Origin: JAYKJB01 sp035284745 [NCBI: Candidatus Sericytochromatia bacterium]
GTDB lineage: Bacteria > Cyanobacteriota > Sericytochromatia > S15B-MN24
Length of the DNA stretch: 38,248 nt
Direction of reading: 5' to 3'
Assembly (NCBI GenBank): GCA_035284745.1
Contig: JAYKIL010000038.1
Location: 1-38,248 of the forward strand
A program made the translations under genes and the position numbers. Numbering within the stretch: the first letter of the stretch is position 1; each line of letters opens with the position of its first letter. Below, piece by piece: positions 2,255-37,708 of this stretch. The notes below the pieces were generated by a model. It did no database searches. It was not told where the DNA came from and saw only the letters and a list, made by a program, of their open reading frames with translations.

Positions 2255-3427
2255 TCAAGCGTCGCGCAACTCATCCCTCAACGATACAACCGCGGCGACA
2301 AAACGCTCTACCTCCTCATCGGTGTTGTAAAAATGGGGAGACACCCGAATGCCGCACGCGGGGCGGTGGTCAATCTGAAAATTGTGCCGTAGCAAGGCCT
2401 GGCTGACGGCCTGTGATCCCGGAAAGTCAATGCACACCGTGCCACCGCGCATCTGATCGTTCTGAGGGTTCTTGATCTGCAAATTGGCTGCTTGGGCCAA
2501 CGCCATGAGTTTGCGCGTCTGACGAAGGCTCTTCGCGCGAATGGCTTCAACGCCCACCTCAGCGATAATGCGGTAACCTTCGCGCGCGGAATAGAGAGAA
2601 GCAACCCCCGGACTCCCCCCCAGAAAACGCAACACATCATCGGCGTATTCCATGTCCATTCGGAAGGCAAAAGGCGCCTTGTGACTCAACCAGCCTGTCT
2701 GACGCGGCGCAAAATGCGGCACCAAGTCCGGCCGCACGTACAAGTAGGCCGCCCCGGGCCCCCCGCACAACCATTTCACGGATCCCCCCACCACAAAATC
2801 CACCCCGAGAGCCTGAACATCGAGCGGCACAATCCCCAGCGACTGGTACGTATCCAGAACCACGTGGGCACCATGGTGGTGAGCCTTTTCGATGATCGCC
2901 TTGGCGTCTTGCACATAATTGCTCTGAAACAATACGTGCGAGATGGGCACCACCAAGGTGGTGTCGTCGATCGCATCAAGCACCTTTTCCGTGGGCACGT
3001 GGATGCCATCCGGACTCTCGACCAAACGAACTTTTGCCCCGATTCGCTGCTGTTCCTGCCACAGGTAATGCACCGTGGTGAAGTTCATCGCTTCGTAGAC
3101 CACCCCATTTTTGGAGCCCGAAAAATCAAAGCAGCTGGCCAGAATGCTCTGCAAGGTCGACACATTTTGATGCATCATCACACTGCCCGCAGGGGCGTTC
3201 ATCAATCGCCCAAGCATATCTCCCGTGGCTTGAATCAGGGGAAACCATGTCTCCCAAGCCTCGATGCCATCACATTCCCAGCGCTCGGCAAAGGCCAAGA
3301 GCGACTCTTTTACTCCGCGGGGCATCGCCCCCAATGAGTGGTTCACCAAGTATGTTTTGTGAGCCAGAATAGGAAATTCGGACCGCCAGGCCAACAAAGG
3401 ATCCAAGGTCGTTTCAGCAGCGCTCAT
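2255..3427 (-). CDS. kynU: Kynureninase
   Basis: A 390-residue PLP enzyme of the class V aminotransferase fold, predicted to cleave L-kynurenine to anthranilate and alanine in the cytoplasm. The family pattern is clear: NHSLGAMP near residue 30, the PLP-contacting Asp in VVLDTYQSLG at about 192, the Schiff-base Lys in GGSVKWLCGGPG at about 218, then a Gly-Trp and a SHKAPFAF segment. It is slightly shorter than typical kynureninases (about 400-420). The ATG at 3427 is chosen because GAGGAG sits seven bases upstream; a TTG six codons earlier has no such site. It follows the tryptophan 2,3-dioxygenase gene by 26 bases in the same direction. Kynurenine formamidase, needed between the two steps, is not in this window. 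Confidence 0.93.
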   Translation of the reverse strand: MSAAETTLDPLLAWRSEFPILAHKTYLVNHSLGAMPRGVKESLLAFAERWECDGIEAWETWFPLIQATGDMLGRLMNAPAGSVMMHQNVSTLQSILASCFDFSGSKNGVVYEAMNFTTVHYLWQEQQRIGAKVRLVESPDGIHVPTEKVLDAIDDTTLVVPISHVLFQSNYVQDAKAIIEKAHHHGAHVVLDTYQSLGIVPLDVQALGVDFVVGGSVKWLCGGPGAAYLYVRPDLVPHFAPRQTGWLSHKAPFAFRMDMEYADDVLRFLGGSPGVASLYSAREGYRIIAEVGVEAIRAKSLRQTRKLMALAQAANLQIKNPQNDQMRGGTVCIDFPGSQAVSQALLRHNFQIDHRPACGIRVSPHFYNTDEEVERFVAAVVSLRDELRDA

Positions 3428-3453
3428 TGATTGAACTCCTCGCAACTATACTT

Positions 3454-4335
3454 TTACGGGTGAAAGGGACACCCGCGGGACGGAGACACGGTGGTTCCGC
3501 CGTAACCCGGCGTGCCCCCACCCCCTAATCGTGTTCTTGCTTCCAAAAGCATGGGGAAACAGCGTTTCTGTAGCGTAGAACGCAGGTAACCCGCCCCACT
3601 CGACCCCCCGGTCCCCACCCGGGCACCGATCACCCGCTCGACGACGCTGACGTGATGGAACCGCCACAACCCGAGTTGGGTATCAAAGTCGACCAAGGCC
3701 TCTGCCAACATATACAAGTCCATATGGGCTTCGGGATGCTCATAAAGCGCAACCAACACTTGCAAAAGGCGTTCACGCTCGGGGCCCGGCGCAGGGTCAT
3801 TCGACAGCACAGGCGCTTGCAAGTGATCGAGATCGATCAACAAGGCTTGAAAACACGCCCAGAGACCAGGTTGGGTGGCACGCTGCCTCAGGCTGGACAG
3901 CCCAGACTGCTCAACGAAGTGATCATAATAGGATTCGTCGACCAAGCCCGCGAGAAATTCGAGCTCTCTAAACTGAAACGACTGAAAGCCACTCGCTGGA
4001 TTCAGGTGTCCACGGAACCCCAGAAACTCAATCGGAGTCATTGTTTCAAGAATATGAATCTGAGATACCAGAAGTTTTTGTATCTCGACGACCCGCCGCA
4101 TAAAGTGATGAGCCCTGAGAACTTGGCGTTGCGCCATATAACTCATCGCGTTTTCTAATTCAAACAAAATCAACTTAAACCACAGCTCGTAGGCCTGGTG
4201 AATCACAATAAAGAGCATTTCGTCGTGATGAGGAGGCTGTGACTGCAACTGCTGCAACGACAAAAGTTCGGGAACCTTGAGATAGCTCCCGTATGTCAGG
4301 TCAGTAGGCTGGAATGTATTGGGTTGATCAGTCAC
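3454..4335 (-). CDS. kynA: Tryptophan 2,3-dioxygenase
   Basis: A 293-residue heme dioxygenase that opens the indole ring of L-tryptophan with O2 to give N-formylkynurenine. Family signatures: DEMLFIVIHQAYELWFK with the distal-pocket His at about 46, the heme-ligand His in RFHHVSVVERVIG at about 228, and the GTGGSSG substrate loop at about 241-247. The GTG at 4335 is chosen for the AAGGAG about seven bases upstream; a TTG 12 codons earlier lacks one. An unusual feature is a tail of about 23 residues after the normal family end (LLEARTRL), rich in Gly, Thr and Pro and closing with GCPFHP. First gene of an operon with kynU. Its presence implies an aerobic or oxygen-tolerant host. Confidence 0.94.
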   Translation of the reverse strand: MTDQPNTFQPTDLTYGSYLKVPELLSLQQLQSQPPHHDEMLFIVIHQAYELWFKLILFELENAMSYMAQRQVLRAHHFMRRVVEIQKLLVSQIHILETMTPIEFLGFRGHLNPASGFQSFQFRELEFLAGLVDESYYDHFVEQSGLSSLRQRATQPGLWACFQALLIDLDHLQAPVLSNDPAPGPERERLLQVLVALYEHPEAHMDLYMLAEALVDFDTQLGLWRFHHVSVVERVIGARVGTGGSSGAGYLRSTLQKRCFPMLLEARTRLGGGGTPGYGGTTVSPSRGCPFHP

Positions 4336-4514
4336 AAGCAGACTCCTTGCATCCTTTAAGGATACCGCCAAGGACGCGTTCCTTGTAGCGGCAGCGCGAA
4401 GAAAAAGTCCGATCGATAACCCTCAACAGATTGACGCAATTGCGGTACACTGAGGGCGTCGTGCGGTATGGTTTGCCGCACCCGTGATACAGAAACAGGA
4501 TATTCCCCGCCTCC

Positions 4515-7500
4515 ATGTCAGACTCTCTCTCCACGGCGGAATTTGAGCAAGTCGTCGTCAAGGTTTCAGAAAAACTGGATGACCTTCGTGGCAAAGCTCG
4601 GTTCGCAACTGCTAACGGCGCATTGCCCTATTCAGGGCTCGACATCACAGAACATCTCGGGGAACTCGCTCCAATTTTGGCGACACTGATTCGCCAGGAT
4701 CCAGAGGAGCCCGTCACCACGAACGCCCGCCTCGAAGTGGGGGGACGTCGTTTGGCCTTGACAGCCATCAGCGCTCTTTTGTTGCAGGGGGATGGCCTCG
4801 CCGATTTCCCTGCCCGGTACAAAAACCTGATGGGTTGCGAGCCGGAATGGGACCTGTTCAGCAAATTACTTCCGACAGCGATGCGTGAGGCCGGCTTGGC
4901 GGTGCCACCCCGCGGTGGGTCTGGTGCGATGCTGGAAGCCCTGTTGTTATCCGCGGGGTTACCCCACGGCTTGATGAGCGCCGTTGCAGAATATTTCGTG
5001 ATTTATTGGCGCTACTTTCACCCGTGCGAAAGTGCGATGGCTCCTTTGGAGTCCGCGCAACAATTCGCAAGCATCCCTGCCCCTGAACAGACCACCCTGA
5101 AAGACCTCAGGGGACGCCTTTTGCCCAACGCGGGTGTGGTCAAACCAGTTTTGGATGAACTGGCGATTTTGTTTGAAGAAATGCGCAGTTCCCCTCAGTG
5201 GCGCGTGGGTGATTTGTTCAATCAGTCGGAAAATATTAAGGCACACACCGGGATTGACCCGAAACGTTTGCTGCAGAGCAATGAGGCAGCGCTCGAAATT
5301 TTAATCAGCGGCTTGAGCAAGGCTTGGCACCCCAGCCAATTCCAGTGCGTGCTTGCCAGTCACCCGCGGGGCAGCGAGGTTCGTCTTCCTTCGGGTTCTC
5401 TGGCCATGGTGGACAAGGCGTTCAGAGTGCCTCAGTGGGGCCTGTACCGCATTGAGCACAAAACCTATATGGTCACTCCCAACGAAGGCCTGGACCTTTC
5501 AGATCTTCTCACCATCAACGAGGTGGGTTTTCTGGGCGCCCGAGTTTTTTGGCGTGGGGAGGCTGAACCGGCCATCACGCTGGACGGCCTTCCGGGCCTG
5601 GAGGAAGCCAGGGCTGTTTTCGATGACGACCGGCAACCGCGGGGCTACGTGTGGATGGCGCGCGCCGTTCCGGGCCAGGTCCTCGGTACGGACGGCACCC
5701 CTTGGCTCACTCTTTCGGGGGTGCATTGGGGTGCAACCCTGGTCGTTCAGCCTCTTGCAGACGGAGAACCTCGCCTGAGTATCGCGTTACAAGACTTCAG
5801 GGTGTCGCTCCCCGCGCACAAGGGCGCCAGTCTGCAACTGAGCTGTGCGGCAGTGACCTCGGGTGCGGTCGCGCAATTCGACCTGGATGAAGCGGGCAAT
5901 GCTCACCTGCCGAACATTTGTGTTCCGCTGGACGCACCCGAGCCTGGAAGTATGGAACTCCGCCTCCAGGATGGCAGCACCGGTGAGGATATAAAACTGG
6001 ACGGTCAGTCTTTGGTGCACCCAATGACGTTGCCGGACATGATGCTAATTTCGCAAAATACGCAAGAAAAGGTGGCACCTCGCGACAGCCATCGTCGTTT
6101 TGGTGCGCCTTCCTATTGGCTGTTTGCCACTCGGCCTGTGAACACAGGGGCGCTGCAAATGCGCGATATTGGCGTACAAACCTGCGCCAAGCACGGCGCA
6201 TTTGATATCCATAGTTTGAGTTGGACCGACCCGGCCTCCGCCCTCGAGATCTATGTCGATGGGCGTTTCCAATGGAACTTTGACTATCGCATCGATAACG
6301 CGTTCCAAGCGGCAGACCTTCCGGAAGCCCCAGTGCCTTTGGTATTCGCGCCGCACACACCGCGCACCTTTACGGTTGCCTCGGTCGATTCGCTGTACAT
6401 CGACGACGTGTCGATGCTCGAGAATACCTGGGTATCGCTGGAGCGCGACCATCACGAACTGTTCCGCCTGAGTTGGAACGAGCTGAACTGGCTGATGAAC
6501 TTCCCTGTTGAGAATCGGCGGCTTTCGGGCGCCATGGTTCGCCGGATCCTCGATGTCGCTCCAGAGGCAGATCTGGCGGGCCGTTATATCTTGCGGCTGC
6601 ACGCCGCGGGAAGCGTTCTTGGTTCCCGCGAACTGCTGATTTTGCCGACACTGGATGTCGTGGTAGCCCCGCAGGGCCTCGTGGATGAAGATGCTGTCTT
6701 CACGCTGACTGCCCGCGGATCACTGCCCTGTTTTCCGGGGCACGCGACGGAAAGTCAGTTGATATTGGGTCGACCCGTCGTCGATCGGGACGCGATGGAG
6801 AATCCGCCCTTCGCCCCCAAGCCCTTAGAGGGAAAACTTGTTTTCGCTCATCCGCCGGTTGAAATTGGCGTGTCTGTGGTCCCGGATGTGGGCGGTTTCC
6901 GTCTCCTCGACGACAACGAAGGAACGTGGGTACGTAAAACCGTCTTGGGCTTTGAAGAGCTGGATCACCTCACGCTGGTTTTGTTTGCCGCCCAAGGAGT
7001 GAGCGGTGTACTGCGGGCTGGCCTCTCCGCTCCACTGGTTGAAGAGTTTTACGAAGGCTTTGCCACATTCGCATTAGGCAGTGTACAAACGGCCCTCAAC
7101 GAGCACGAAACCGAGATGGAAGTCGAAATCGACGGCAGGTCGTTCGGGACGCTTACCGTCGTTTGGCACCCGCGAATTACGCGCTTTGAGGTGGGCAGTG
7201 AGTACCTGCTGGATGGTGTCGCCTTGGTTGATCTGGCGGCAGTGGGCCCGGGGGATGTTCCCATTCGCCTGGAGGCATTCAGCCCCTCCGGTGAACGCTT
7301 GGCAAAACTGGAAGTAGAAACAGACGGCAACATCGACCGCGTGGTCATGTTTCCAATTCCCGGAAGCAAAGAACACCCTGTCGTGACCATCAAGGCCTTT
7401 GTGCCCTCAATTCAGGGGGGCATGGCAGCGGGCACCATCGAAGTTCGTAACGCGACATTCGAGCCCGAAATTGAAGCGTTAAACACTCAGATCGCAGCGG

Positions 7501-7739
7501 AGCCTCGCTCGGCGGAACTTCGCTACGAGCGGGCCCAACTGTTGTTGGTTCGTGGCTTGCGAAAAGCGGCGGCGCGCGATTTTCAGGCCGCCATCGACCT
7601 TGGGATGTCGGAACTGATCGATTCCCCTCAATATCAACAATTCCTCAGTCAACGGCGTGCGGAAGGCTTCCACGAGGACATCAAAGCCCTGGCAAGTTTC
7701 TTTGTGCCGTTCGCCCGGAAGGAGCTCTCCATTGGCTAA
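4515..7739 (+). CDS. Large beta-rich protein of unknown function (1074 residues)
   Basis: I recognise no named family. There is no signal peptide or membrane segment, so it should be cytoplasmic. Residues 1 to about 300 look mostly helical, including a segment similar in style to a small helical repeat domain. About 300-980 is a long series of beta-rich segments with many short Val/Leu strands, reminiscent of Ig-like or carbohydrate-binding sandwiches (for example LEIYVDGRFQWNF). The last 90 residues are helical with a TPR-like pair near 1000-1050 (RYERAQLLLVRGLRKAAARD). No ATPase, nuclease or protease motif was seen. It overlaps the next gene by eight bases, so the two are very likely translated together and act together. 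The ribosome binding site before ATG 4515 is weak. Confidence 0.8.
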   Translation: MSDSLSTAEFEQVVVKVSEKLDDLRGKARFATANGALPYSGLDITEHLGELAPILATLIRQDPEEPVTTNARLEVGGRRLALTAISALLLQGDGLADFPARYKNLMGCEPEWDLFSKLLPTAMREAGLAVPPRGGSGAMLEALLLSAGLPHGLMSAVAEYFVIYWRYFHPCESAMAPLESAQQFASIPAPEQTTLKDLRGRLLPNAGVVKPVLDELAILFEEMRSSPQWRVGDLFNQSENIKAHTGIDPKRLLQSNEAALEILISGLSKAWHPSQFQCVLASHPRGSEVRLPSGSLAMVDKAFRVPQWGLYRIEHKTYMVTPNEGLDLSDLLTINEVGFLGARVFWRGEAEPAITLDGLPGLEEARAVFDDDRQPRGYVWMARAVPGQVLGTDGTPWLTLSGVHWGATLVVQPLADGEPRLSIALQDFRVSLPAHKGASLQLSCAAVTSGAVAQFDLDEAGNAHLPNICVPLDAPEPGSMELRLQDGSTGEDIKLDGQSLVHPMTLPDMMLISQNTQEKVAPRDSHRRFGAPSYWLFATRPVNTGALQMRDIGVQTCAKHGAFDIHSLSWTDPASALEIYVDGRFQWNFDYRIDNAFQAADLPEAPVPLVFAPHTPRTFTVASVDSLYIDDVSMLENTWVSLERDHHELFRLSWNELNWLMNFPVENRRLSGAMVRRILDVAPEADLAGRYILRLHAAGSVLGSRELLILPTLDVVVAPQGLVDEDAVFTLTARGSLPCFPGHATESQLILGRPVVDRDAMENPPFAPKPLEGKLVFAHPPVEIGVSVVPDVGGFRLLDDNEGTWVRKTVLGFEELDHLTLVLFAAQGVSGVLRAGLSAPLVEEFYEGFATFALGSVQTALNEHETEMEVEIDGRSFGTLTVVWHPRITRFEVGSEYLLDGVALVDLAAVGPGDVPIRLEAFSPSGERLAKLEVETDGNIDRVVMFPIPGSKEHPVVTIKAFVPSIQGGMAAGTIEVRNATFEPEIEALNTQIAAEPRSAELRYERAQLLLVRGLRKAAARDFQAAIDLGMSELIDSPQYQQFLSQRRAEGFHEDIKALASFFVPFARKELSIG
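7719..7724 (+). promoter_or_regulatory. Ribosome binding site that sets a TTG start
   Basis: AAGGAG lies seven bases before TTG 7732, inside the end of the upstream gene. The next in-frame ATG (7762) has no comparable site. The start codon overlaps the upstream stop in the string TTGGCTAA, a translational coupling arrangement. Confidence 0.65.
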
Positions 7740-9135
7740 GTCTGAAACAGAAGCCCAAGCAATGAATCAAGCGGTAGAAACAGTTCTCGGAGGACTGGGC
7801 CTGAAGCGCAAGCAAGAGCTCATCGAGCGGAACGATCGGTTGCGCCCGCAGTTTTTGGGGACCCAAAAAATAGCGGTGGGTAAAGCACGCGAGGGACAGA
7901 TCAACACCTTCCTGTCTCCATTGGTGGCTGCCGACAAGAAGATTAGAGCGCTCGTTTTCAGTGCGTGGCTCAAGGATAACTTAACGTCTTTGGGTGATGT
8001 CCCTGAATTCTCGGAAGTGTTCAAGCGCGACTCGGACGCAGCCACTTCCCCGGATGAGGCAACACTGGAAGCGGCCACCAAAGAGGCGACCCAAGCCGTC
8101 AAAAAATGGTTGAAGGCCACGGATTATGAACTCGTCAACGCCTTCGTTCGCCTCGGCCCCTACGATTTCCCAACCAAGGTCACGACCGGCGTGAAGCCGC
8201 CCAAGGCGAAAGCAGGGGCGGAAGCCTCGCCGGATGGGGGTCAAGACGCCGGATCATCGGCGGAGGTCGCTGGAGGGGTACCGGAAAGCGTGGTGGAGGA
8301 CTTACGGCGCGAAATGGAATCGCAACGGATCGCGGCCGAGGCGAAACTCGCGAAAGCGGAAGAAGAAATCAGCAAATTTAAGCGTCTGCTCGAAGAAAAT
8401 AAAGAGAAGCGAAAACAAGAACTGAGTGAAGCAACAGAAAAGTCCAAAAGTGAGTTGCAAGGAAAACAGCAGGACTGGCAGCGCACAGAAGTTCAGTTGC
8501 GGCGGGAGATTGGTGAGTTACAAAAGTCCCGCCAAGATATGGCGGACAAGACCAGCAAGGCTCGCGACGAGATATTCCCGCTCAAACAGCAAATTGAGCG
8601 TTTGGAAAAAGAGGCGCGGCGGGGCACTTCTCAGTCACAAGAAGCGCGTGCTGAGGTTTCGCGTCTCGTTGATGAAAATCAACGCTTGACGGAACGCATC
8701 AAGGGCCTTGAAAGCCTCCAGCAACAATTGGTTCAAAAAGACCGTCAACTTCAGATTATGCGCCAGAAAGGTGCGTCAGTGATGTTGACGACCTCTGACA
8801 ATCTCAAAATTTGGGAGGAAGCCCTCAACGAGCAAGAAGTCAAAGAGGCCTTCCGTCGCACGTTCAATCTGGATACCATTCGCGTCAATCACTTTGAACA
8901 CGACGAAAGAGATCTTCACGAGGTGTGGAAAAAGCTGATCGCACACGAGCAAGGTCTTGTCGACAGATTCTTTGCGTTGCCCTTCGAAGAACTGACGACG
9001 CCGAGCGATGATTTCCGGGAACTGGTCACGAATTTCATCGAACTGAAAGACACCCTCGTGGCGCGGGAGCAATTGGCTCACATGTTAAATTTTGTGGGTG
9101 ATCGCTTCTTGAACACCTTGAAGCAAAAAGTATAG
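7732..9135 (+). CDS. Coiled-coil protein of unknown function, partner of the 1074-residue protein
   Basis: A 467-residue soluble protein from the TTG at 7732 (457 from ATG 7762). Three parts can be seen: an N-terminal globular region (about 1-150) with KWLKATDYELVNAFVRLGPY; a low-complexity Pro/Ala/Gly linker (about 152-184); a long highly charged coiled coil (about 185-345) rich in Glu, Lys, Arg and Gln; and a C-terminal globular helical region (about 355-467). It lacks Walker motifs, so it is not a complete SMC or Rad50 ATPase despite the similar coiled coil. The overlapping start with the upstream gene makes this a two-gene unit. A structural or scaffolding role beside the larger protein is inference; the function is not known to me. 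Confidence 0.8.
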   Translation: MAKSETEAQAMNQAVETVLGGLGLKRKQELIERNDRLRPQFLGTQKIAVGKAREGQINTFLSPLVAADKKIRALVFSAWLKDNLTSLGDVPEFSEVFKRDSDAATSPDEATLEAATKEATQAVKKWLKATDYELVNAFVRLGPYDFPTKVTTGVKPPKAKAGAEASPDGGQDAGSSAEVAGGVPESVVEDLRREMESQRIAAEAKLAKAEEEISKFKRLLEENKEKRKQELSEATEKSKSELQGKQQDWQRTEVQLRREIGELQKSRQDMADKTSKARDEIFPLKQQIERLEKEARRGTSQSQEARAEVSRLVDENQRLTERIKGLESLQQQLVQKDRQLQIMRQKGASVMLTTSDNLKIWEEALNEQEVKEAFRRTFNLDTIRVNHFEHDERDLHEVWKKLIAHEQGLVDRFFALPFEELTTPSDDFRELVTNFIELKDTLVAREQLAHMLNFVGDRFLNTLKQKV

Positions 9136-21546: not shown

Positions 21547-21601
21547 GACCATTGAGAGAATAGCGGGTTTCGCGCGTAAAATGCCCCCCGCAGACCGCAT
21601 T

Positions 21602-21637
21602 AAAAAAGGAGCCGTTCAGGTCCCCCTGTCCGGCTCC
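21602..21637 (-). terminator. Rho-independent terminator of the ligase cluster
   Basis: On the minus strand, GGAGCCG (21637-21631) pairs with CGGCTCC (21614-21608), followed by six T (21607-21602); an inner CAGG/CCTG pairing extends the stem. It lies 25 bases beyond the stop of the last ligase gene and ends that transcript. Confidence 0.8.
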
Positions 21638-21661
21638 GGTTTCTGGTGAGAGGGTGACGGC

Positions 21662-22621
21662 CTAGTTAGCCGCCGCAGCCATCTTGGCGTCTTCGAGCGC
21701 AAACTGCCACGCGTGGCGTTTCGGCATCTTGCGGCCCTCACGCACGTAGCGCACACACATTTCAGCCATCGCATTGACCACCCACTCGAAGTTTTCCGGG
21801 CGAATCGAGTGGTAGTCCATGTCGGGCGCAGGATTCATAAAGTCGATGGCATAAGGCACGCCATCTTTGCACGCGAACTCCACTGAATTCATGTCGTAAC
21901 CCAATGCGTGGCAGATGGTTCGCGCATCGCGTATCACCCGTGCCACGAGCGGATCATTCGTGTCAGCCAAGCCCGGAACGTAGCGTTCATGGAAGTAGGC
22001 GCGAGGATTATAACGAATGGGCAGCACATTATCCTTCCCGATGCACAGGCAACGGAAGTAGTCATCGAAGTCAATGCACTCTTGGGCAATCATCACCAAA
22101 TTGCCAGTCTCTTCATACGCTTTGAAGAATTCTTGGATGTTGTTGACTTTATAAACATTCCGCCAACCGCCCCCGTCGTAAGGCTTCAGGATGGCAGGAA
22201 AACCAATGTATTCAAAGACTTCCTTCCAATCCACCAACGCCTGATTGCGGTAGGACATCTCTGTGGTCCGCGGAAAGCGACGCTTGGCTGGCAACACCGT
22301 CGTCCGGGGATGCGTGACGCCAAGTTGAGTGACCAAAGCGCCATCAAAGAACTTGTCATCCGCCATCCACCAGAATGGATCATTCACGACGTACGTGCCC
22401 GTCAAAACAGCGTTCTTGAGGAACGGTTTGTAGGTCATAATCTCGTGAGAGATACGATCGACAATGAGGTCATAACCTGAAGGCTCGCCCATCTTGGGTG
22501 CTGAAAGACGAACGAACTCACCAATGATCTCGCCACCCCCCAGTTCATTGACCTTGTTAATGAAGGCGTGGGGGAAGCTGTCTTCAAAACCCACGAGAAT
22601 TCCGATTTTCTTTGGTGCCAT
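21662..22621 (-). CDS. ATP-grasp ligase (RimK or D-Ala-D-Ala ligase-like)
   Basis: A 319-residue protein with an ATP-grasp fold. The N-terminal pre-ATP-grasp domain begins KKIGILVGFEDSFPHAFI. The ATP-binding core shows the first lysine segment FPAILKPYDGGGWRNVYKV (about 162-180), the hinge region LVMIAQECIDFDDYFRCL, and the metal-binding end NSVEFACKDGVPYAIDFMNPAPD (acidic residues and Asn, about 260-282). Such enzymes activate a carboxylate as acyl phosphate and join it to an amine. The start ATG 22621 follows CAGGAG. It is the last gene of the cluster, 60 bases after the GCS2-type ligase, and is closed by a terminator. The substrate is unknown. Confidence 0.85.
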   Translation of the reverse strand: MAPKKIGILVGFEDSFPHAFINKVNELGGGEIIGEFVRLSAPKMGEPSGYDLIVDRISHEIMTYKPFLKNAVLTGTYVVNDPFWWMADDKFFDGALVTQLGVTHPRTTVLPAKRRFPRTTEMSYRNQALVDWKEVFEYIGFPAILKPYDGGGWRNVYKVNNIQEFFKAYEETGNLVMIAQECIDFDDYFRCLCIGKDNVLPIRYNPRAYFHERYVPGLADTNDPLVARVIRDARTICHALGYDMNSVEFACKDGVPYAIDFMNPAPDMDYHSIRPENFEWVVNAMAEMCVRYVREGRKMPKRHAWQFALEDAKMAAAAN

Positions 22622-22681
22622 GATCTCCTGCTGTTCTCCATCGAATAAGCCCGGCGCCGGCGCCAAGCGTGCCCTCTAACC

Positions 22682-23827
22682 TTATTCGCCCGTGCCCGAA
22701 CCCGTCGCAACCGGCGTTTCAATGCCAGCGACTGTTTCAGCCACGACCCAGTCAACGACCGCTTTGAGGTCGTTCGTTTCCCTGTAAATCTCAAGTTGCT
22801 TGTCCGCGCTTGTGCCCCGCTTCATGATGGTCCGAATATGTTCCACTTCTTTGCGACTGCCCAATTCGTCCAAGACATCGTCGACGAAAGCCAATAATTC
22901 TTCAATCAACTCCGTTGCCGGTTTTTCAGATTTCAAACCAAAGTCAATTAATTTTCCACCCAATCCGTACCGATACGCGCGCCACTTGTTCTCTTCCAAC
23001 AAGGCACTCGAATACACGCGAAAACCCATATTCTGAGAACGAAGAATATACAACTTGGCAACAATGGCTTGAATCAAGGCGACAATCGCCACCGTATCAT
23101 CCAGTGAGGTCGGTAAGTCGCAAATTCGGAACTCTATCGTGTTGAAGAATGAGTGCGGACGCAGATCCCACCAAATTCGCTTGCCATCATCGATGCACTG
23201 CGTCTTCACGAGGGTATCGACGTAGCTTTCAAATTCGCCCCAGCTTCTGAATGTCTCGGGAATTCCCGTGCGCGGGAATCGCTTGAACACAATGCAGCGA
23301 ACAGACTTCAGGCCGGTCACCCGCCCGAGCCAAAAAGGACTGCTGGTCGACAGCAACAAAATGTGGGGCAGAAAATAACGGGCTTCGTTGAAAATCTCGA
23401 TCGCCAAGTCGCGATCTGGGATGCCTATGTGACAATGCAACCCAAAGACCAGGTTACCCCGCGCAACATCCTGAAGATCCTCGACAATCGTATGGTAGCG
23501 TTCACGGTCAGTAATGGCCTGATGACGCCAGTCGCTGAATGGATGTGAACTGGCCGCCGCAATTCGCATTCCGCCTTTGCGTGCCGCCGAGGACACCGCA
23601 GAGCGCAAGCGCGCAACATCTGCCCGGGCCTCTTGGATGTTTTTGCAAATTCCAGTTCCAACCTCAATGACCGATTGGTGCATCTCTGGCTTGAGTGCCT
23701 CAATCAGGTTCGCTTCCGCGTTCTCCAGTAACGTTGAGATGTGGCTCTGCAATTCCCGCGTTTCGGGATCAATGATCTGATATTCTTCCTCGACCCCGAT
23801 AGTAAATTGTTGCAGGTTGAGTGGCAT
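22682..23827 (-). CDS. Carboxylate-amine ligase, GCS2/YbdK family
   Basis: A 381-residue protein of the glutamate-cysteine ligase family 2 (YbdK-like), with the glutamine synthetase-type fold. Markers: the N-terminal TIGVEEEYQIIDPETREL, FGLHCHIGIPD in the middle, RRPHS-like WWDLRPHSFFNTIEFRICD with the metal and substrate residues, and ENKWRAYRYG. The E. coli homologue makes a weak gamma-glutamyl-cysteine bond, but the family is used for many carboxylate-amine couplings. ATG 23827 lies seven bases after the stop of the upstream ATP-grasp gene, so the two are one operon. With ATP-grasp genes on both sides, stepwise assembly of a small peptide-like metabolite is a natural inference. Confidence 0.92.
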   Translation of the reverse strand: MPLNLQQFTIGVEEEYQIIDPETRELQSHISTLLENAEANLIEALKPEMHQSVIEVGTGICKNIQEARADVARLRSAVSSAARKGGMRIAAASSHPFSDWRHQAITDRERYHTIVEDLQDVARGNLVFGLHCHIGIPDRDLAIEIFNEARYFLPHILLLSTSSPFWLGRVTGLKSVRCIVFKRFPRTGIPETFRSWGEFESYVDTLVKTQCIDDGKRIWWDLRPHSFFNTIEFRICDLPTSLDDTVAIVALIQAIVAKLYILRSQNMGFRVYSSALLEENKWRAYRYGLGGKLIDFGLKSEKPATELIEELLAFVDDVLDELGSRKEVEHIRTIMKRGTSADKQLEIYRETNDLKAVVDWVVAETVAGIETPVATGSGTGE

Positions 23828-23834
23828 GAAGGGC

Positions 23835-25223
23835 CTATTTCTCCGATACAACGAAGGTGGGGACTATCCCACCACCGGCCGTGACATTGCACAACGCAGT
23901 GGTCGAAAGGCGCGTGAGGAAGCCGTGGGCCTCGCCAAAAAACATATAGGGGTCGATATCGATGGTCTGCGGTTCCCAAACCAAGCCGGCTTCACCCCAC
24001 ACCGGGAAAGTGACCTGCGGAGCTTCAACTTTCCACTGAACCACATAGGGTGACCTTTGGGCCTCATCCAAGGCTGCGCGCCACTCGTCCGGGGTTGACG
24101 TCCAGCCGATGTAAATCCCCTTGCCCCCATACTCATCGTTGGGTTTCAGCACCAAATTCTGCTGGTTATCCAAAATCCAGGGCAGCAAGTCAATGGTCTC
24201 GCCTGAGAAGGTTTGAGTGTGACCTGGTTGGACCAAACGGGTCCAGGGCACCGCGCTTTTCACCGCCTCCCGCTCCTCTGGAGTAAACCCGGCCATCACT
24301 CTTTCGTCCGTCACCACCGCAAAAATTGACTTTTTATGCAGCAACTTCGAGCGGAACGGGTTCACAACACACGCAGCCCCCGTCCGGTAGGCGTCCCAGA
24401 AAGCGTGTAGTTGGTCGAACCGTTCCAAAAACTCATTGGTCAACAATCTCCGGTACACCAAGTCAATCTCAAAGCCTTCTTTGGTCAGCAACCGACCATT
24501 TTCAAAGCGTAGATCGCGGGGATCCGCCACCTCGACCGCATATCCCTGCGCTCGAAAGTAATCCCGACACAAATAAAACTCTTCAAGCGTTGGCACGTCC
24601 AAATAATCGACGATCGCAATTTGCGGTTTTTCTCGCCGGTCTGTATGCCCATTTCCTCGCCAATGGGAATACACGTCGACCAGCATCTGCAGCAGTGGTA
24701 CCCGCACATCAAACGTCTCCACATTGAAGCGCTCCTGGAACCTTTTCATCACCGGTTCTTCGAGCCATAGGTTGGCGAGAACAGTGGTGAATGCGGGGCC
24801 TGCCGGACACTCTGCGTTCAATTCCACGTATGCGTAGTGATGGTCGCTGATAAATGAATCGTAGCGGCACGTGGGGGTCAGCCAGGGATAGCCGGGGTCC
24901 GGCGCGATCAGGCGTTCCTCTTCAGGGGTCAGACGCAACAAATCTCTGATGGTGGCGTCCGCTTGAATGACCGACGCCGCCTTCTCCATCGCCTCGTTCA
25001 CGCGCTTGCTGACGGCCTGCACGTGATCCCACTGTTGGGCACTGATAAACTGGGGACGCATGTAAGGGCAGCTCGAGCGACCGCCAAAGGTAATTTTGGC
25101 ACCGATCACCCGCTGTTGAAAAGCGTTGTAGTCGGCCTGGGTGAGGGCTGACTCCCGCAGGAGATCGTCATAGTGGGCGATGGCAGACTGAACCAGCGAC
25201 GTTTGACGCGTGACCTGAGCCAT
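23835..25223 (-). CDS. Circularly permuted ATP-grasp protein
   Basis: A 462-residue protein related to the circularly permuted ATP-grasp families (glutathionylspermidine synthase-like and relatives). Visible blocks: an N-terminal helical part with GGRSSCPYMRPQFI; DSFISDHHYAYVELNAECPAG, resembling the acidic metal site; RRLLTNEFLERF; and late ATP-binding blocks NLVLKPNDEYGGKGIYIGW (about 360-378) and YVVQWKVEAP. The ATP-binding lysine therefore lies near the C-terminus, as expected for a permuted fold. It likely forms an amide bond using ATP. It is cotranscribed with the GCS2-type ligase (7-base gap) and is preceded by a small Cys-rich ORF 24 bases upstream. ATG 25223 has GAGGA about ten bases before it. 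Confidence 0.85.
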   Translation of the reverse strand: MAQVTRQTSLVQSAIAHYDDLLRESALTQADYNAFQQRVIGAKITFGGRSSCPYMRPQFISAQQWDHVQAVSKRVNEAMEKAASVIQADATIRDLLRLTPEEERLIAPDPGYPWLTPTCRYDSFISDHHYAYVELNAECPAGPAFTTVLANLWLEEPVMKRFQERFNVETFDVRVPLLQMLVDVYSHWRGNGHTDRREKPQIAIVDYLDVPTLEEFYLCRDYFRAQGYAVEVADPRDLRFENGRLLTKEGFEIDLVYRRLLTNEFLERFDQLHAFWDAYRTGAACVVNPFRSKLLHKKSIFAVVTDERVMAGFTPEEREAVKSAVPWTRLVQPGHTQTFSGETIDLLPWILDNQQNLVLKPNDEYGGKGIYIGWTSTPDEWRAALDEAQRSPYVVQWKVEAPQVTFPVWGEAGLVWEPQTIDIDPYMFFGEAHGFLTRLSTTALCNVTAGGGIVPTFVVSEK

Positions 25224-25247
25224 AGCGAGCGGATCCTCAACAGGTTC

Positions 25248-25370
25248 CTAAGCCAATGAAAAACACTCATCCAGCAAAGGACAACGAACACAGCATCGCC
25301 ATTCTACCAACTCACGGCCAAAGCAACCAGAGTGCAGGCCAAGACGCTTGCGGTTGATCGTGGTCGCCAT
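25248..25370 (-). CDS. Possible 40-residue cysteine-rich small protein
   Basis: A short frame just upstream of the permuted ATP-grasp gene, same strand, 24-base gap. It starts MATTINRKRLG and carries four cysteines in a pattern that looks like a small zinc ribbon: GCFGRELVEW, then CCVRCPLLDEC. The CFG(K/R)E ... CxxCPxxxEC arrangement occurs in many small metal-binding proteins, which is why I report it although it is short. The ribosome binding site before ATG 25370 is weak, and the frame stays open upstream to about 25457, so the start is uncertain. It could be a zinc-ribbon regulator, a peptide acted on by the ligases, or chance. Confidence 0.4.
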   Translation of the reverse strand: MATTINRKRLGLHSGCFGRELVEWRCCVRCPLLDECFSLA

Positions 25371-31458: not shown

Positions 31459-33603
31459 CTATTGCGGTGTGGGAAGGCGGATAACCGAGGGCACCAAGCT
31501 GTTCAAGACAGTAAAAACCACGCTTCCCGGCCGGGACAAGGCACCACCACGGAACTGCGGTGACACTGTCGGGTCCGCAGGGATGGAGGCAAAGGCCTGG
31601 GGCGCCACCGTCGCCCCACTGGCGGGATAATCTACGTAGTACGCTGTGCCGTCAGTCGACACATACAGGCGATTGCCATCAGGCGCCAAAGCCACGGCGC
31701 CGTAAGTATCCCCGTTGGCGATCGTAGCGATGACGGTGGCCGCGGCGGTCGTGCCATCATCCGAGTAGCGTAACAGCCTGCCGCTTCGCGACATCCAATA
31801 CACGCGGGTCGCTGTTCCGTTCGCGTCCACAGCCAGGTTCCACGCACCCCGCGGCGCCTCATTCCCCGGTATGCTTGACAGTTGCAAGGGACTGCCTCCC
31901 ACGGCCATGGTTTGCGAGGCCGCATCGTCCAAGTCTCCCGTCAAAGGCCACGAACGAATAAAGCCGTCGCCAGGGTTTCCAGAAGCGTTGCTGAGTTGCC
32001 AAAAGCGTCCTCCTGAGACCACACCACCAGCGGCGCGCAGACCCACCGCGCCCGAGGCCTCCAGCGTGTAGGTGGCGAGGCTGTTGTCCCAAGCAAAGCG
32101 GGCCACGCAAGGCTGTTGTAGGCCGCCCCAATTGTCCACACTCACCAGGATGGTGGTTGTGCTGTCGTCGACGGCCGCCACCCCCACGAGATAGGCCGTG
32201 ACTCCCGGCAGGGCAAAGCTGACCGGCTCGGAATCGCCACGCGCAGACAGGCGAAAAAGCCTGGTACTCGAAGAAGCAGTGTCCGTCACCAAGATGGCAT
32301 CCCGCAGACCGGGTGGGATGTCAACGCGGTTTCCATAAAAGCCGACGCCAAGTGCGCTGTTGATCCCGCCCCAGCTACGCAGAGAATCCAATCCTGGTGG
32401 GGGTGCAGGCGGGGGGCCACCCCCGCTGCCGCCTGGGCTGGAGGGCACGAAATGGCTGGTCACCACGCCGCCCAGCTTGATGGGGTTGCGTTGCCCGCTG
32501 AAGCCCAGCAGGCCACTGGGGCTGATCACCACGCGGTCTAAAGGGAAATCCCGCGCCACGATAGGCGCCAGGCCCTCCCGAGCCACCAAGGTCTGGGCCG
32601 CCAGCGCCAAAAGCTCCGCCTGCACAGCCTTGAAGAGGCTATCAAACACGCCCAGGTTCGTCACCGCTGTGCGGAAGTTCTCCAACTGGCTGGTCTCGCC
32701 TGCGCTGTTGACGGCCCCTACCAGGCGCGCCGCAGCATCCGACTTGTCCAGGGATGGACTGATCCCGCGGAGGCCAGGGATGGCCGAGAGCGGGGACTTG
32801 TCCAGGGATGGACTGATCCCGCGGAGGCCAGGGATGGCCGAGAGCGGGGACTTATCCAGGGCTTCTTCCACTTCCTGTGCTGCCTTGCGCGCGGCTTCCA
32901 GCACCGCGGCCTGCCGCTCGGCACTGGCAACCTCCGGCAACTGGAAGGTCAACTTCAAAGCCCCTTCAAAGGCCTGGGTCGCCGCCGTGGTGGCAGGCGA
33001 CAGCCGCAGCCGGATGGTCACCGTCACCGCTGTGCCCTGCTGCAACTGGTAGCTCGCCGTCGTAGGCGTGTCAGCGCCAATGGCCTGACCACGGTTGTTG
33101 AACAGAGCCGTGAAGGTCTGATTGCCCTTGGTGGCCACCAGTTTTACAACCTGACCCTCGTTCAACTTGGGAAATTCAAGAGGTTGTCCAGGGATGGACT
33201 GATCTTGCAAAGGCCAAGGATGGCCGAGAGCAAGATCGAAGGCACCCTTGGCGTCAGTCTTGTGGGTGGAGAGCAGCTTCAAGCCCGTGGGAACATCACT
33301 CCAGGGCGTCAGTACAATCGCCTTGCCGGTCGCCACGTCCACCGCAGTCAGACTGGCGTCTGTCACCGGCGTGTCGTTGAACAGCACCACGCCCGTCAGG
33401 CGCAAACGCGCATCGTTGGAGATGGGCGGAGCAGCAGGCAATTCAGGTGCGGGCGCGGGTTTCACGCTGGCAGGCGCCGGAGTGCCCGGCGGGGCCGTTG
33501 CCACCGGGGTGCCTGCGGGCGCGGGGCTCGTTACGGGGGCAACGCAACTCGAAAGCGCGGCCATCAGAGCCGTAGAAGCCAACAGTTTACGACGCACGGA
33601 CAC
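31459..33603 (-). CDS. Large predicted lipoprotein, unknown
   Basis: A 714-residue protein. Residues 1-20 (MSVRRKLLASTALMAALSSC) form a lipoprotein signal with a good lipobox LSSC, Cys20 being the lipid site. A Pro/Ala-rich linker follows (to about 60), then a beta domain like a carboxypeptidase regulatory domain (about 65-130), a helical region (about 205-330), a Gly/Pro linker (about 390-405), and a C-terminal half with repeated beta segments resembling a beta-propeller (NRLYVSTDGTAYYVDYP). I recognise no full-length family. Two tandem 54-base repeats encode residues about 252-287, and a diverged copy encodes about 122-140 in another frame. GTG 33603 is chosen for AAAGGA nine bases upstream; GTG seven codons earlier is also possible. 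Confidence 0.8.
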   Translation of the reverse strand: MSVRRKLLASTALMAALSSCVAPVTSPAPAGTPVATAPPGTPAPASVKPAPAPELPAAPPISNDARLRLTGVVLFNDTPVTDASLTAVDVATGKAIVLTPWSDVPTGLKLLSTHKTDAKGAFDLALGHPWPLQDQSIPGQPLEFPKLNEGQVVKLVATKGNQTFTALFNNRGQAIGADTPTTASYQLQQGTAVTVTIRLRLSPATTAATQAFEGALKLTFQLPEVASAERQAAVLEAARKAAQEVEEALDKSPLSAIPGLRGISPSLDKSPLSAIPGLRGISPSLDKSDAAARLVGAVNSAGETSQLENFRTAVTNLGVFDSLFKAVQAELLALAAQTLVAREGLAPIVARDFPLDRVVISPSGLLGFSGQRNPIKLGGVVTSHFVPSSPGGSGGGPPPAPPPGLDSLRSWGGINSALGVGFYGNRVDIPPGLRDAILVTDTASSSTRLFRLSARGDSEPVSFALPGVTAYLVGVAAVDDSTTTILVSVDNWGGLQQPCVARFAWDNSLATYTLEASGAVGLRAAGGVVSGGRFWQLSNASGNPGDGFIRSWPLTGDLDDAASQTMAVGGSPLQLSSIPGNEAPRGAWNLAVDANGTATRVYWMSRSGRLLRYSDDGTTAAATVIATIANGDTYGAVALAPDGNRLYVSTDGTAYYVDYPASGATVAPQAFASIPADPTVSPQFRGGALSRPGSVVFTVLNSLVPSVIRLPTPQ
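32741..32848. repeat. Tandem pair of a 54-base structured repeat
   Basis: Two exact 54-base copies (32741-32794, 32795-32848), followed by the first bases of a third. Each contains hairpins GTCCA-GGGA-TGGAC and GGCCA-GGGA-TGGCC, the second enclosed by an outer stem CCCGC/GCGGG. Being 18 codons long, the units keep the lipoprotein gene in frame and add DKSPLSAIPGLRGISPSL twice. Confidence 0.9.
33184..33237. repeat. Diverged third copy of the structured repeat
   Basis: Matches the tandem copies over GTCCAGGGATGGACTGAT and in the second hairpin, but the outer stem is GATCTTGC/GCAAGATC instead of CCCGC/GCGGG: both sides have changed so that pairing is kept. It is read in a different frame of the same gene (GHPWPL instead of SAIPGL). 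Confidence 0.85.
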
Positions 33604-33651
33604 TGGGCAAGGTCCTTTCCACACGGAGGGCTCCAGCTAACCCTGAGGAAA

Positions 33652-36212: not shown

Positions 36213-37649
36213 CTAAAAGCCGCGGGTGACGCTCAGAGCAAAGGTGGCATCATAGATTGAATAAAACAACACGGGCTGCTGTAAATTGTACTCAAATGCA
36301 ATGCTCGGCAAACCCTGGGCGCCCAGATCCCAATTCAAGTCAACTGACAACCCCGCCTGCTCACCCAACAAAGAGCCCGGTCCGGGAACGATTTGGGGGT
36401 CCTGCGCGAACAAAATTTGCGGCTCCTTCACGCCAACGATCAAAGAGGGTACCCACGTGGGACCTTGGGTAGGGATAAAGAGAGACAGGCCCGGCGTGAG
36501 CTCTGTGATGGCTTTTTCCGATTCCGAGTAAACAGCTCCGGCATTCAATCGCATATTGTTCCAGAATGCCCAAGAGAACTGTAGCGATCCTCTCATCAGG
36601 TTGCGAGCAATGTTGCCCTCCGCAGCCACCGCCCAGTTGCCCGCATTGGCATCCACCACCACCGTGTAGTTACTCGCTGTCGTCCGATTCGGCGTAATGC
36701 CCCACCAATCCGGTTGGTCTACATCTGCCGCCGCTTTCACCGACAGCCATTTAGTAATCTCGGCAGACAGCCCCGCCAGCAAAACGGTAGGGGTTATGGC
36801 ACCAGCCAGCGTGACGGGACCGAATTGGCGCCGCGCCCCCAGGGCTGCGGCACGGGGCCCCCAGCGCACTGTGTTCACATCAGGAGAAATGAACCCCTTC
36901 CCAAGCACCCCCCACCAGCGCGCAGGAATGACAGACGAGGGATAAAAAACCTTCGCAGGTGAGAACTGTCCCACCACGACACGGGTATCGGCCACATTGG
37001 TCGTCACATCGGCCCCGCCAAACCGCCAATTATTTTCCGGCGGCTTCGCGCCCCCGACCGTGCCCGGCATGTTCCCCGTGGTCGTTCCAGGAACCGAGCC
37101 AAACATCGCCGCCGAAAGATCGAAACCATTGCTGCTGGACCCAACGCTCAGATTCAGGTTGCTCTTAGAATAAGGGGCCTGATCGTCTTGGGTATTATCC
37201 ATCCAATTGGAGCTGATGGCACCGCCTAAACGGATCGAAGCGGGCCCTTGGTTCTTCACTTTCTCGATTTCAGCCAGCAGTTTCTCAACCTGGGGGATCA
37301 CCTTGGCGAGTTCCAGGCTGTGATTCACAGCCTTGATCGCATCCACCTCCACTTGGGGTGGGGGCGCACTGACTGGAACCCGCATTTGCTCCATCACCTT
37401 GGTGAGGGCTGCGGCCAACTCATAACGACTCACCCGGCGATCGCCCCGGAAAGTCCCTTCTGGAAATCCGGCCATCACCTTGTATTTGCGAACAAGCGTC
37501 TCGACCGTCAAAAACGCCCAGTGTTCCACCTCAACGTCACCGAAGGTGCCGAACTCTGCCTCAAACTGGGCCATGGCCATGCGAGGGTACAGGCAGTCCC
37601 CAAATAGAAACAAAAGCGCTGCACAAGCAAGCAGAAACTTAGACTTCAC
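36213..37649 (-). CDS. SLH-domain outer-membrane porin-like protein
   Basis: A 478-residue exported protein. It begins with a signal peptide (KSKFLLACAALLFLFGD, cleaved probably after AMA). One SLH domain follows (about 35-90; DVEVEHWAFLTVETLVRKYK, then GFPEGTFRGDRRVSRYELA), which binds the pyruvylated secondary cell-wall polymer or peptidoglycan. A short coiled-coil helix (about 105-135) leads into a long beta-strand region to the end, closing with Phe (SVTRGF), as usual for outer-membrane barrels. This plan resembles cyanobacterial SomA/OprB-type porins. The GTG at 37649 is preferred over a TTG two codons earlier; neither has a strong ribosome binding site. The porin supports a Gram-negative envelope with SLH anchoring. 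Confidence 0.85.
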   Translation of the reverse strand: MKSKFLLACAALLFLFGDCLYPRMAMAQFEAEFGTFGDVEVEHWAFLTVETLVRKYKVMAGFPEGTFRGDRRVSRYELAAALTKVMEQMRVPVSAPPPQVEVDAIKAVNHSLELAKVIPQVEKLLAEIEKVKNQGPASIRLGGAISSNWMDNTQDDQAPYSKSNLNLSVGSSSNGFDLSAAMFGSVPGTTTGNMPGTVGGAKPPENNWRFGGADVTTNVADTRVVVGQFSPAKVFYPSSVIPARWWGVLGKGFISPDVNTVRWGPRAAALGARRQFGPVTLAGAITPTVLLAGLSAEITKWLSVKAAADVDQPDWWGITPNRTTASNYTVVVDANAGNWAVAAEGNIARNLMRGSLQFSWAFWNNMRLNAGAVYSESEKAITELTPGLSLFIPTQGPTWVPSLIVGVKEPQILFAQDPQIVPGPGSLLGEQAGLSVDLNWDLGAQGLPSIAFEYNLQQPVLFYSIYDATFALSVTRGF

Positions 37650-37708
37650 GGTCAAGGGACTTTGCCGCCAGTCACGCCATCAGTCACGCCCTGCCCCAGC
37701 GCCTGAGC

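What the first reader, a model, noticed from the sequence alone, without database searches (positions are those of the whole stretch)
21602..25370. Uncharacterised amide-ligase cluster: permuted ATP-grasp, GCS2-type ligase, ATP-grasp, and a possible Cys-rich mini-protein
Three different ATP-dependent ligase folds that form carboxylate-amine bonds lie in one minus-strand operon (gaps 7 and 60 bases) closed by a terminator. Clusters mixing ATP-grasp and glutamine synthetase-like amidoligases have been described as makers of peptide-like metabolites, but this exact set, preceded by a 40-residue protein with a CFGRE / CxxC pattern, matches no pathway I know. The product could be a small peptide, a glutathione-like thiol, or a modification of the mini-protein.
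Basis: partly seen in the sequence, partly recalled or inferred. Interest (0 to 1): 0.68.

Follow-up and report, generated by a model that had tools for sequence, protein, structure and literature searches.

The report
Widespread uncharacterised three-ligase peptide pathway
Three neighbouring genes encode enzymes that each forge an amide bond, and the same trio recurs in distant bacterial phyla, so they probably build one small, still unknown peptide-like molecule; the tiny cysteine-rich protein suspected beside them does not look real.

Summary
The three-gene minus-strand operon is real: permuted ATP-grasp 23835-25223, GCS2 22682-23827, ATP-grasp 21662-22621; gaps 7 and 60 bases; hairpin terminator. 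In the class of the nearest named relative, 8 of 18 genomes carry GCS2 and the same 8 carry both partners, together in 7 and cut by contig ends in one. In 247 Bacteroidota genomes the ATP-grasp occurs in 86, GCS2 in 79 and a remote permuted ligase in 73; 65 have all three, 39 in one cluster. Acidobacteriota carry trios with either permuted ligase. Hydrolases (M29 peptidase, amidotransferase-like, esterase) accompany many relatives; none was found beside the window genes.
Best reading: one pathway making a short non-ribosomal gamma-glutamyl-type peptide, perhaps polyamine-capped, because the remote permuted ligase folds like YgiC/YjfC and glutathione(yl-spermidine) synthetases (Z up to 24.7). 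Substrates and product are inferred.
The 40-residue frame is rejected: absent even from the closest relative. A replacement thiol is unlikely in Bacteroidota: BshC is in 242 of 247 genomes. Novelty is uncertain because Iyer et al. 2009 could not be read.

The parts
23835..25223 (-). permuted ATP-grasp ligase (462 aa), first gene
   Evidence: PF14403/PF04174 over cut-off; PDB 3n6x 'putative glutathionylspermidine synthase' E 3.6e-7 with the family profile; 48 invariant columns in 13 sequences, one of them a fragment, including K360-P-N-D363
22682..23827 (-). GCS2 / YbdK-type carboxylate-amine ligase (381 aa), second gene
   Evidence: NF010039 540.9 bits against cut-off 371; PF04107 193.5 bits; PDB 1tt4 and 1r8g (YbdK) E 2.6e-50 and 4.7e-48; GhExE motif G11-V-E-E-E15, with G and all three E invariant in 18 sequences
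21662..22621 (-). ATP-grasp ligase (319 aa), third gene; RimK/LysX/ArgX-like fold
   Evidence: fold search Z 21.8 to RimK; invariant K146-P-Y-D-G-G-G-W-R154 and D260-F-x-N263 in 22 sequences
21602..21637 (-). intrinsic terminator-like hairpin and T run after the third gene
   Evidence: fold of 21590-21665 minus: -31.6 kcal/mol, z -2.95; not in the list of the short-loop scan
25301..25310 (-). extended -10-like element (TTGGTAGAAT), putative promoter of the operon
   Evidence: 28 of 40 identical in the best ungapped 40-mer shared with the upstream region of G008 (best of 100 shuffles 26); the sigma-70 scan, which asks for both hexamers, did not list it
25248..25370 (-). 40-codon Cys-rich frame proposed as mini-protein: judged not a gene
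   Evidence: no homologue in the loci held, no family; its ATG lies about 60 bases upstream of the putative -10

Best explanation
The operon encodes three amide-forming steps of one cytosolic, ribosome-independent pathway. Proposed order (inferred): GCS2 phosphorylates the gamma-carboxylate of glutamate and joins it to an amine or amino acid; the RimK/LysX-like ATP-grasp adds a further residue to a free carboxylate; the permuted ATP-grasp, of the glutathione synthetase / glutathionylspermidine synthetase / YgiC type, adds the last amino acid or caps the C-terminal carboxylate with a polyamine. In relatives an M29 peptidase, a class-I amidotransferase-like protein and an alpha/beta esterase probably trim or recycle the product. 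Shown here: the three genes, their folds or families, their conservation, clustering and co-occurrence, and no small precursor gene shared across the lineages compared. Inferred: substrates, order of steps, product. Sub-confidences: one pathway 0.9; small gamma-glutamyl-type peptide product 0.55; polyamine or amine cap 0.3.
For: Class of G001, 18 genomes: GCS2 in 8, and those same 8 have the permuted ligase at 45% identity or more and the ATP-grasp at 53% or more; 7 on one contig, G001 cut at contig ends within GCS2. Bacteroidota, 247 genomes: ATP-grasp 86, GCS2 79, third ligase 73; all three 65; 39 in one cluster, 26 with all three but not within 6 kb (some may be contig breaks), so co-occurrence seems to outlast linkage. 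Acidobacteriota, 199 genomes: ATP-grasp 59, GCS2 57 (strict E), window-type permuted ligase 38, all three 25, one cluster in 8. The Bacteroidota third ligase is itself a permuted ATP-grasp: pLDDT 82.5; Foldseek E 5e-13; Z 24.7 YgiC, 23.7 YjfC, 23.0 human glutathione synthetase, 22.8 glutathionylspermidine synthetase, then a drop from 18.7 to 6.9. YgiC/YjfC have peptide-spermidine ligase activity (title of Pederick et al. 2023, seen only as a reference in PMC12568646). No precursor ORF shared across lineages.
Against: No activity or metabolite is known to me for any member found here. The structure that resembles YgiC is that of the Bacteroidota/Acidobacteriota partner, not of the window's own permuted ligase, which was not folded; the two are linked only weakly by profile comparison (E 1.1e-5, probability 82, but E 0.003-0.01 and probability 4-11 with other alignments). 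The window ligase has no PF03738 (GSP_synth) match. The window and its two nearest relatives lack the M29 gene between GCS2 and ATP-grasp. 9 of 79 Bacteroidota genomes with GCS2 lack the ATP-grasp and 16 of 86 with the ATP-grasp lack GCS2; where both occur they lie within 6 kb in 46 of 70 Bacteroidota and 26 of 44 Acidobacteriota genomes. The 7 Myxococcota homologues among the 63 loci (31-34%) have no GCS2 in the stretch held. Fisher tests ignore shared descent.
Confidence: 0.55

Rival explanations
1. Protein modification: the RimK/LysX-like ATP-grasp adds amino acids to a carrier or cellular protein, with GCS2 and the permuted ligase priming or ending the tag and the hydrolases removing it.
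For: Nearest folds of the third gene are RimK and the LysX/ArgX enzymes, solved with a carrier protein. Hydrolases accompany the ligases in many relatives.
Against: No small protein shared across lineages in or beside the clusters; the target could lie elsewhere. RimK-family NCBIfam score is far below cut-off (30.2 against 143.4 bits).
Confidence: 0.15
2. A glutathione-like low-molecular-weight thiol: GCS2 makes gamma-Glu-Cys, an ATP-grasp completes a tripeptide.
For: GCS2 belongs to the YbdK family, which NCBIfam also calls related to cyanobacterial GshA (TIGR02050, 290.3 bits against 176.4; YbdK structures); the remote permuted partners fold like eukaryotic glutathione synthetase.
Against: BshC of bacillithiol synthesis is in 242 of 247 Bacteroidota, including 84 of 86 with the ATP-grasp, so a replacement thiol is not needed there; the cyanobacterial GshA equivalog scores 66.9 against cut-off 249. 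Not tested for the window's own lineage.
Confidence: 0.12
3. A ribosomal peptide (the 40-residue Cys-rich protein) modified by the ligases.
For: ATP-grasp fold neighbours include the graspetide ligases PsnB and AMdnB.
Against: The frame is not found in G008 or in any of 238 loci. Other recurrent small ORFs are confined to close relatives or lie antisense in a flanking gene.
Confidence: 0.03
4. Three unrelated genes that happen to lie together.
For: Each belongs to a large family with other contexts; some genomes have only one or two of them.
Against: Conserved clustering and co-occurrence in the class of G001, in Bacteroidota and in Acidobacteriota.
Confidence: 0.05

Closest known systems
Glutathionylspermidine / trypanothione pathway (GCL, glutathione synthetase, GspS; YgiC/YjfC peptide-spermidine ligases)
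   Same: Similar logic of a GCL-type ligase and ATP-grasp ligases of the permuted glutathione-synthetase fold; the third ligase of other phyla superposes on YgiC at Z 24.7 and on GspS at 22.8; hydrolases accompany the ligases in many relatives.
   Different: GCS2 is the YbdK-like PRK13515 type, not a GshA equivalog; there is an additional RimK-like ATP-grasp; the window ligase matches CP_ATPgrasp, not GSP_synth; no fused amidase domain was matched; substrates unknown.
E-64 biosynthesis ATP-grasp Cp1B (PMC12568646, abstract start and passages seen)
   Same: Permuted ATP-grasp of the same fold (9cjn, Z 20.6 for the Bacteroidota-type partner) making a small pseudopeptide without ribosome or NRPS.
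   Different: Fungal, works with an amide bond synthetase and an oxygenase; no GCS2 in the passages seen; about 11% identity.
Amidoligase neighbourhoods of Iyer et al. 2009 (recalled; not held)
   Same: Predicted peptide-making gene clusters that mix ATP-grasp, GS-fold and permuted ATP-grasp ligases with peptidases (recalled).
   Different: Could not be read; whether this exact set is listed there is unknown. Recalled: its flagship system has permuted ATP-grasp with an alpha-E domain and an NTN peptidase, which were not matched among the window genes scanned.
RimK / LysX / ArgX ATP-grasp ligases
   Same: Fold of the third gene (Z 20-22).
   Different: 13-19% identity, far below the family cut-off; different gene partners.

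Membership tests
YbdK/GCS2 carboxylate-amine ligase (NF010039, PF04107) | curated family score | tested here: met
   540.9 bits against 371; 193.5 against 21
YbdK/GCS2 carboxylate-amine ligase (NF010039, PF04107) | GhExE ATP/Mg signature (PMC2588565, passages seen) | tested here: met
   G11-V-E-E-E15 in the window protein; G11, E13, E14, E15 invariant in 18 sequences
cyanobacterial glutamate-cysteine ligase GshA (TIGR02048) | equivalog cut-off | tested here: not met
   66.9 bits against 249.05
circularly permuted ATP-grasp (PF14403/PF04174) | curated score | tested here: met
   33.5 against 32 and 27.9 against 23.1; 13 of 13 members of A4 match PF14403 at E up to 0.1
glutathionylspermidine synthetase (PF03738) | GSP_synth domain match of the window ligase | tested here: not met
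   not listed at E up to 0.1 for any of 13 A4 members
glutathionylspermidine synthetase (PF03738) | spermidine ligation to a peptide carboxylate | not testable with these tools
   needs an enzyme assay
RimK family (TIGR00768) | curated score | tested here: not met
   30.2 bits against 143.4
RimK family (TIGR00768) | ATP-grasp fold of RimK type | tested here: met
   Z 21.8, 264 residues, rmsd 2.9 to 5zct
graspetide (ATP-grasp RiPP) cluster | small precursor gene beside the ligase | tested here: not met
   the 40-residue frame is not conserved; no small ORF shared across lineages in 8 class clusters and 18 other clusters; a 52-residue ORF recurs only in Pedobacter-type loci
permuted ATP-grasp / alpha-E peptide-tagging system (recalled from Iyer 2009) | alpha-E domain or NTN peptidase partner in the neighbourhood | tested here: inconclusive
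   not matched among the three operon genes and three flanking genes scanned (thiolase, HD-domain response regulator, small protein without family); genes further away and those of relatives were not scanned for it

The most novel reading that the evidence does not exclude
A widespread, undescribed class of bacterial metabolite: a gamma-glutamyl peptide-polyamine conjugate, a bacterial counterpart of glutathionylspermidine or trypanothione, made by GCS2, a RimK-like ATP-grasp and a YgiC-type permuted ligase and turned over by dedicated hydrolases, in about a quarter of sampled Bacteroidota (all three ligases in 65 of 247), which nearly all also carry bacillithiol BshC, and in part of the Acidobacteriota and the window's lineage.
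Probability: 0.2. Interest if true: 0.8.

Novelty: new variant of a known kind. Interest (0 to 1): 0.5.

Why it matters
The trio is common (ATP-grasp in 59 of 199 Acidobacteriota and 86 of 247 Bacteroidota genomes sampled), conserved across phyla, and I know of no assigned product. Pedobacter carry it as a five-gene set (esterase, ATP-grasp, GCS2, amidotransferase-like, permuted ligase), so the pathway can be tested by deletion and untargeted metabolomics in cultivable strains. It also gives a function lead to a protein family of which the two members first scanned had no Pfam match.

Tried and rejected
Mini-protein: rejected. Small ORFs: of the recurrent ones, one set (G014, G004, G015) lies antisense inside a conserved, divergently transcribed flanking gene (coordinates); pairs between the window and G008 lie in the upstream flank, away from the 40-codon frame; a 52-residue Cys-bearing ORF lies just beyond the permuted ligase in 19 of the 63 loci, Pedobacter or the related L015, and in no other of 239 sources. 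It is unlike the window frame and I count it as lineage-specific.

Single-protein scan of genome contigs with the permuted ligase found nothing; plasmid search with the ATP-grasp found nothing and with the permuted ligase gave 44 records at under 60% identity, 40 listed and three opened: other contexts with ectB, ThiF, CapA or argE, two of them with other annotated ATP-grasp genes nearby, none with GCS2 or ATP-grasp of this kind by tblastn. Viral contigs gave no relatives (the 9 pattern hits were not relatives; one search found 0). More distant homologues in the class (permuted ligase 27-30%, ATP-grasp mostly 28-35%, in G016-G022) lie on different contigs and without GCS2; left out of the trio count.

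Profile link between the two kinds of permuted ligase: alignment-dependent (E 1.1e-5; 0.0028 and 0.0099; unrelated pairs 0.09-0.59, five column shuffles 0.083-0.45). I therefore rest it on the fold. Fisher p values (1e-7 to 1e-42) are not corrected for phylogeny. GCS2 counts in Acidobacteriota dropped matches weaker than E 1e-140 (64 genomes at 1e-60, 57 kept). Of the 38 Acidobacteriota genomes with a window-type permuted ligase, 8 have only weak matches (E above 1e-70) and neither partner.

Literature: searches listed no paper that I recognised as describing this set; Iyer et al. 2009 is not held, so prior listing there cannot be excluded. PMC8939145, PMC2588565, PMC12568646, PMC12506659 and PMC6282198 were seen as passages only; others as search listings.
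Full report
Observation. On the minus strand the window holds three adjacent genes: 23835-25223, 22682-23827 and 21662-22621, with gaps of 7 and 60 bases. A hairpin with a T run closes the set (21602-21637; -31.6 kcal/mol, z -2.95). The first is a permuted ATP-grasp, the second a YbdK-type GCS2 ligase well above its curated cut-offs, the third an ATP-grasp below Pfam cut-offs whose AlphaFold model (pLDDT 86.3) superposes on RimK, ArgX and LysX (Z 20-22).

Mini-protein. The 40-codon frame (ATG 25370) has no family. Against the 238 loci held at the end tblastn gave a best E of 1.8 (1.1 against the smaller set). In G008, whose enzymes are 84, 88 and 92% identical to the window's, the aligned region shows nothing like it. 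What is shared there is a promoter-like block, TTGGTAGAAT in the window and TTGCTAAAAT in G008, inside the best matching 40-mer (28 of 40; best of 100 shuffles 26). The consensus scan did not list it, so it is a suggestion. Small ORFs outside the main genes were compared all against all, 197 in 8 clusters of the class and 439 in 18 other clusters. Hits fell between close relatives or in flanking genes; one set in three class genomes lies antisense in a conserved neighbour gene. A 52-residue Cys-bearing ORF downstream of the Pedobacter cluster recurs in 19 of 63 loci and nowhere else among 239 sources. No small ORF spans the lineages.

Relatives in the class. No genome is held for the window. 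A DNA pattern for the ATP-grasp motif PYDGGGWR[DN]V found 63 loci, all 63 with this ATP-grasp and 53 with GCS2; of the other 10, three are Pedobacter stretches that end in or just past the ATP-grasp gene and seven are Myxococcota. Among them are L029 (Cyanobacteria bacterium RYN_339; unclassified Cyanobacteriota) and L075 (a bacterium without named phylum). In the class of L029's genome, 18 genomes, 8 carry GCS2 of this kind and the same 8 carry both partners. Order is permuted ligase, GCS2, (M29 peptidase), ATP-grasp. The M29 gene is present in 6 of 8; it is absent from the cluster in G008 and G001, as in the window. The class name is not told by the tools; I think it is Sericytochromatia (inference).

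Other phyla. In the Bacteroidota and Acidobacteriota loci that reach far enough, ATP-grasp and GCS2 are neighbours, with one extra frame between them in L063. Bacteroidota typically have esterase, ATP-grasp, GCS2, class-I amidotransferase-like protein and a 395-residue protein; two examples of the latter had no Pfam match and no NCBIfam match near a cut-off. Acidobacteriota have either that protein with M29 (for example L063, L066) or the window-type permuted ligase (L219, L222, L223, L238). Among the 30 best-scoring ATP-grasp loci of each phylum, GCS2 lies within about 1.5 kb in 29 of 30 Bacteroidota and 17 of 30 Acidobacteriota. In the 63 loci, tblastn finds an esterase of either seed type in 51, the amidotransferase-like protein in 39, the remote permuted ligase in 33 and M29 in 5, many stretches being cut short.

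Co-occurrence. In 247 Bacteroidota genomes: ATP-grasp 86, GCS2 79, remote permuted ligase 73; all three 65; one cluster (starts within 6 kb) 39; ATP-grasp and GCS2 within 6 kb in 46 of the 70 that have both. In 199 Acidobacteriota genomes: ATP-grasp 59, GCS2 57, window-type permuted ligase 38; all three 25; one cluster 8; five more have GCS2 and the permuted ligase together with the ATP-grasp elsewhere; ATP-grasp and GCS2 within 6 kb in 26 of 44. Genomes with only part of the set exist (16 with ATP-grasp and no GCS2, 9 the reverse, in Bacteroidota). In the phylum of G001 the ATP-grasp was found in 15 of 244 genomes, 8 of them the trio genomes. Shared descent inflates these associations and was not corrected for; some separations may be contig breaks.

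The third ligase in other phyla. Its model (pLDDT 82.5) matches permuted ATP-grasp ligases: all 26 Foldseek matches at E 0.001 or better are of this kind, led by 3n6x (E 5e-13), human glutathione synthetase and YgiC. VIA-align gives Z 24.7 YgiC, 23.7 YjfC, 23.0 human glutathione synthetase, 22.8 glutathionylspermidine synthetase, 21.3 trypanothione synthetase, 20.6 Cp1B, down to 18.7, with the next family at 6.9. Sequence support is weak: one of 13 members reaches CP_ATPgrasp_2 (E 0.0013) and one GSP_synth (E 0.024); profile comparison with the window-type ligase is alignment-dependent. So the trios seen contain one GS-fold ligase, one RimK-like ATP-grasp and one permuted ATP-grasp, of one of two kinds.

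Mechanism. From family knowledge, all three kinds of enzyme activate a carboxylate as acyl phosphate and join an amine. YbdK has gamma-glutamyl:cysteine ligase activity (title of Lehmann 2004 seen as a reference). YgiC and YjfC have peptide-spermidine ligase activity (title of Pederick 2023, reference). I infer a short gamma-glutamyl-type peptide, perhaps capped with a polyamine. A replacement thiol is unlikely in Bacteroidota because BshC is found in 242 of 247 genomes, including 84 of 86 with the ATP-grasp. Product, substrates and step order are not shown.

Novelty and score. Searches of the open library listed no paper that I recognised as describing this set, but the most relevant study of amidoligase clusters (Iyer et al. 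2009) is not held. I file it as a new variant of a known kind, interest 0.5: common, well supported as a unit, easily testable, product unknown.

Noticed in passing
2255-4371: A class-V aminotransferase with a kynureninase C-terminal domain next to tryptophan 2,3-dioxygenase: a tryptophan-to-kynurenine breakdown pair.
   Followed up: partly
4515-7739: 1074-residue open frame with no Pfam match at E 0.001, followed by a long coiled-coil-like frame 7657-9135 that was not scanned.
   Followed up: no
31459-33624: 721-residue proline/alanine-rich frame without Pfam match at E 0.001, starting like a lipoprotein and holding a tandem duplication of 18 residues (LDKSPLSAIPGLRGISPS).
   Followed up: no
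96-605: Frame with the peptide STPCGIKVRGSA appearing twice; the DNA may hold a short repeat near the window's left end.
   Followed up: no
36213-37655: Envelope-type protein with an S-layer homology domain, of the kind I recall from Cyanobacteriota; fits the inferred kinship of the window.
   Followed up: partly
L016, L024, L071: Myxococcota homologues of the third gene (31-34% identical) sit beside a different esterase but without GCS2 in the stretch held: a possibly older ATP-grasp plus esterase pair.
   Followed up: partly
L014:1308-1463 (minus) and 18 other loci of the 63: A 52-residue membrane-type ORF ending in a CGGNCKCG-like motif, 73-100% identical in 19 loci of Pedobacter or close kin, just downstream of the permuted ligase.
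   Followed up: partly
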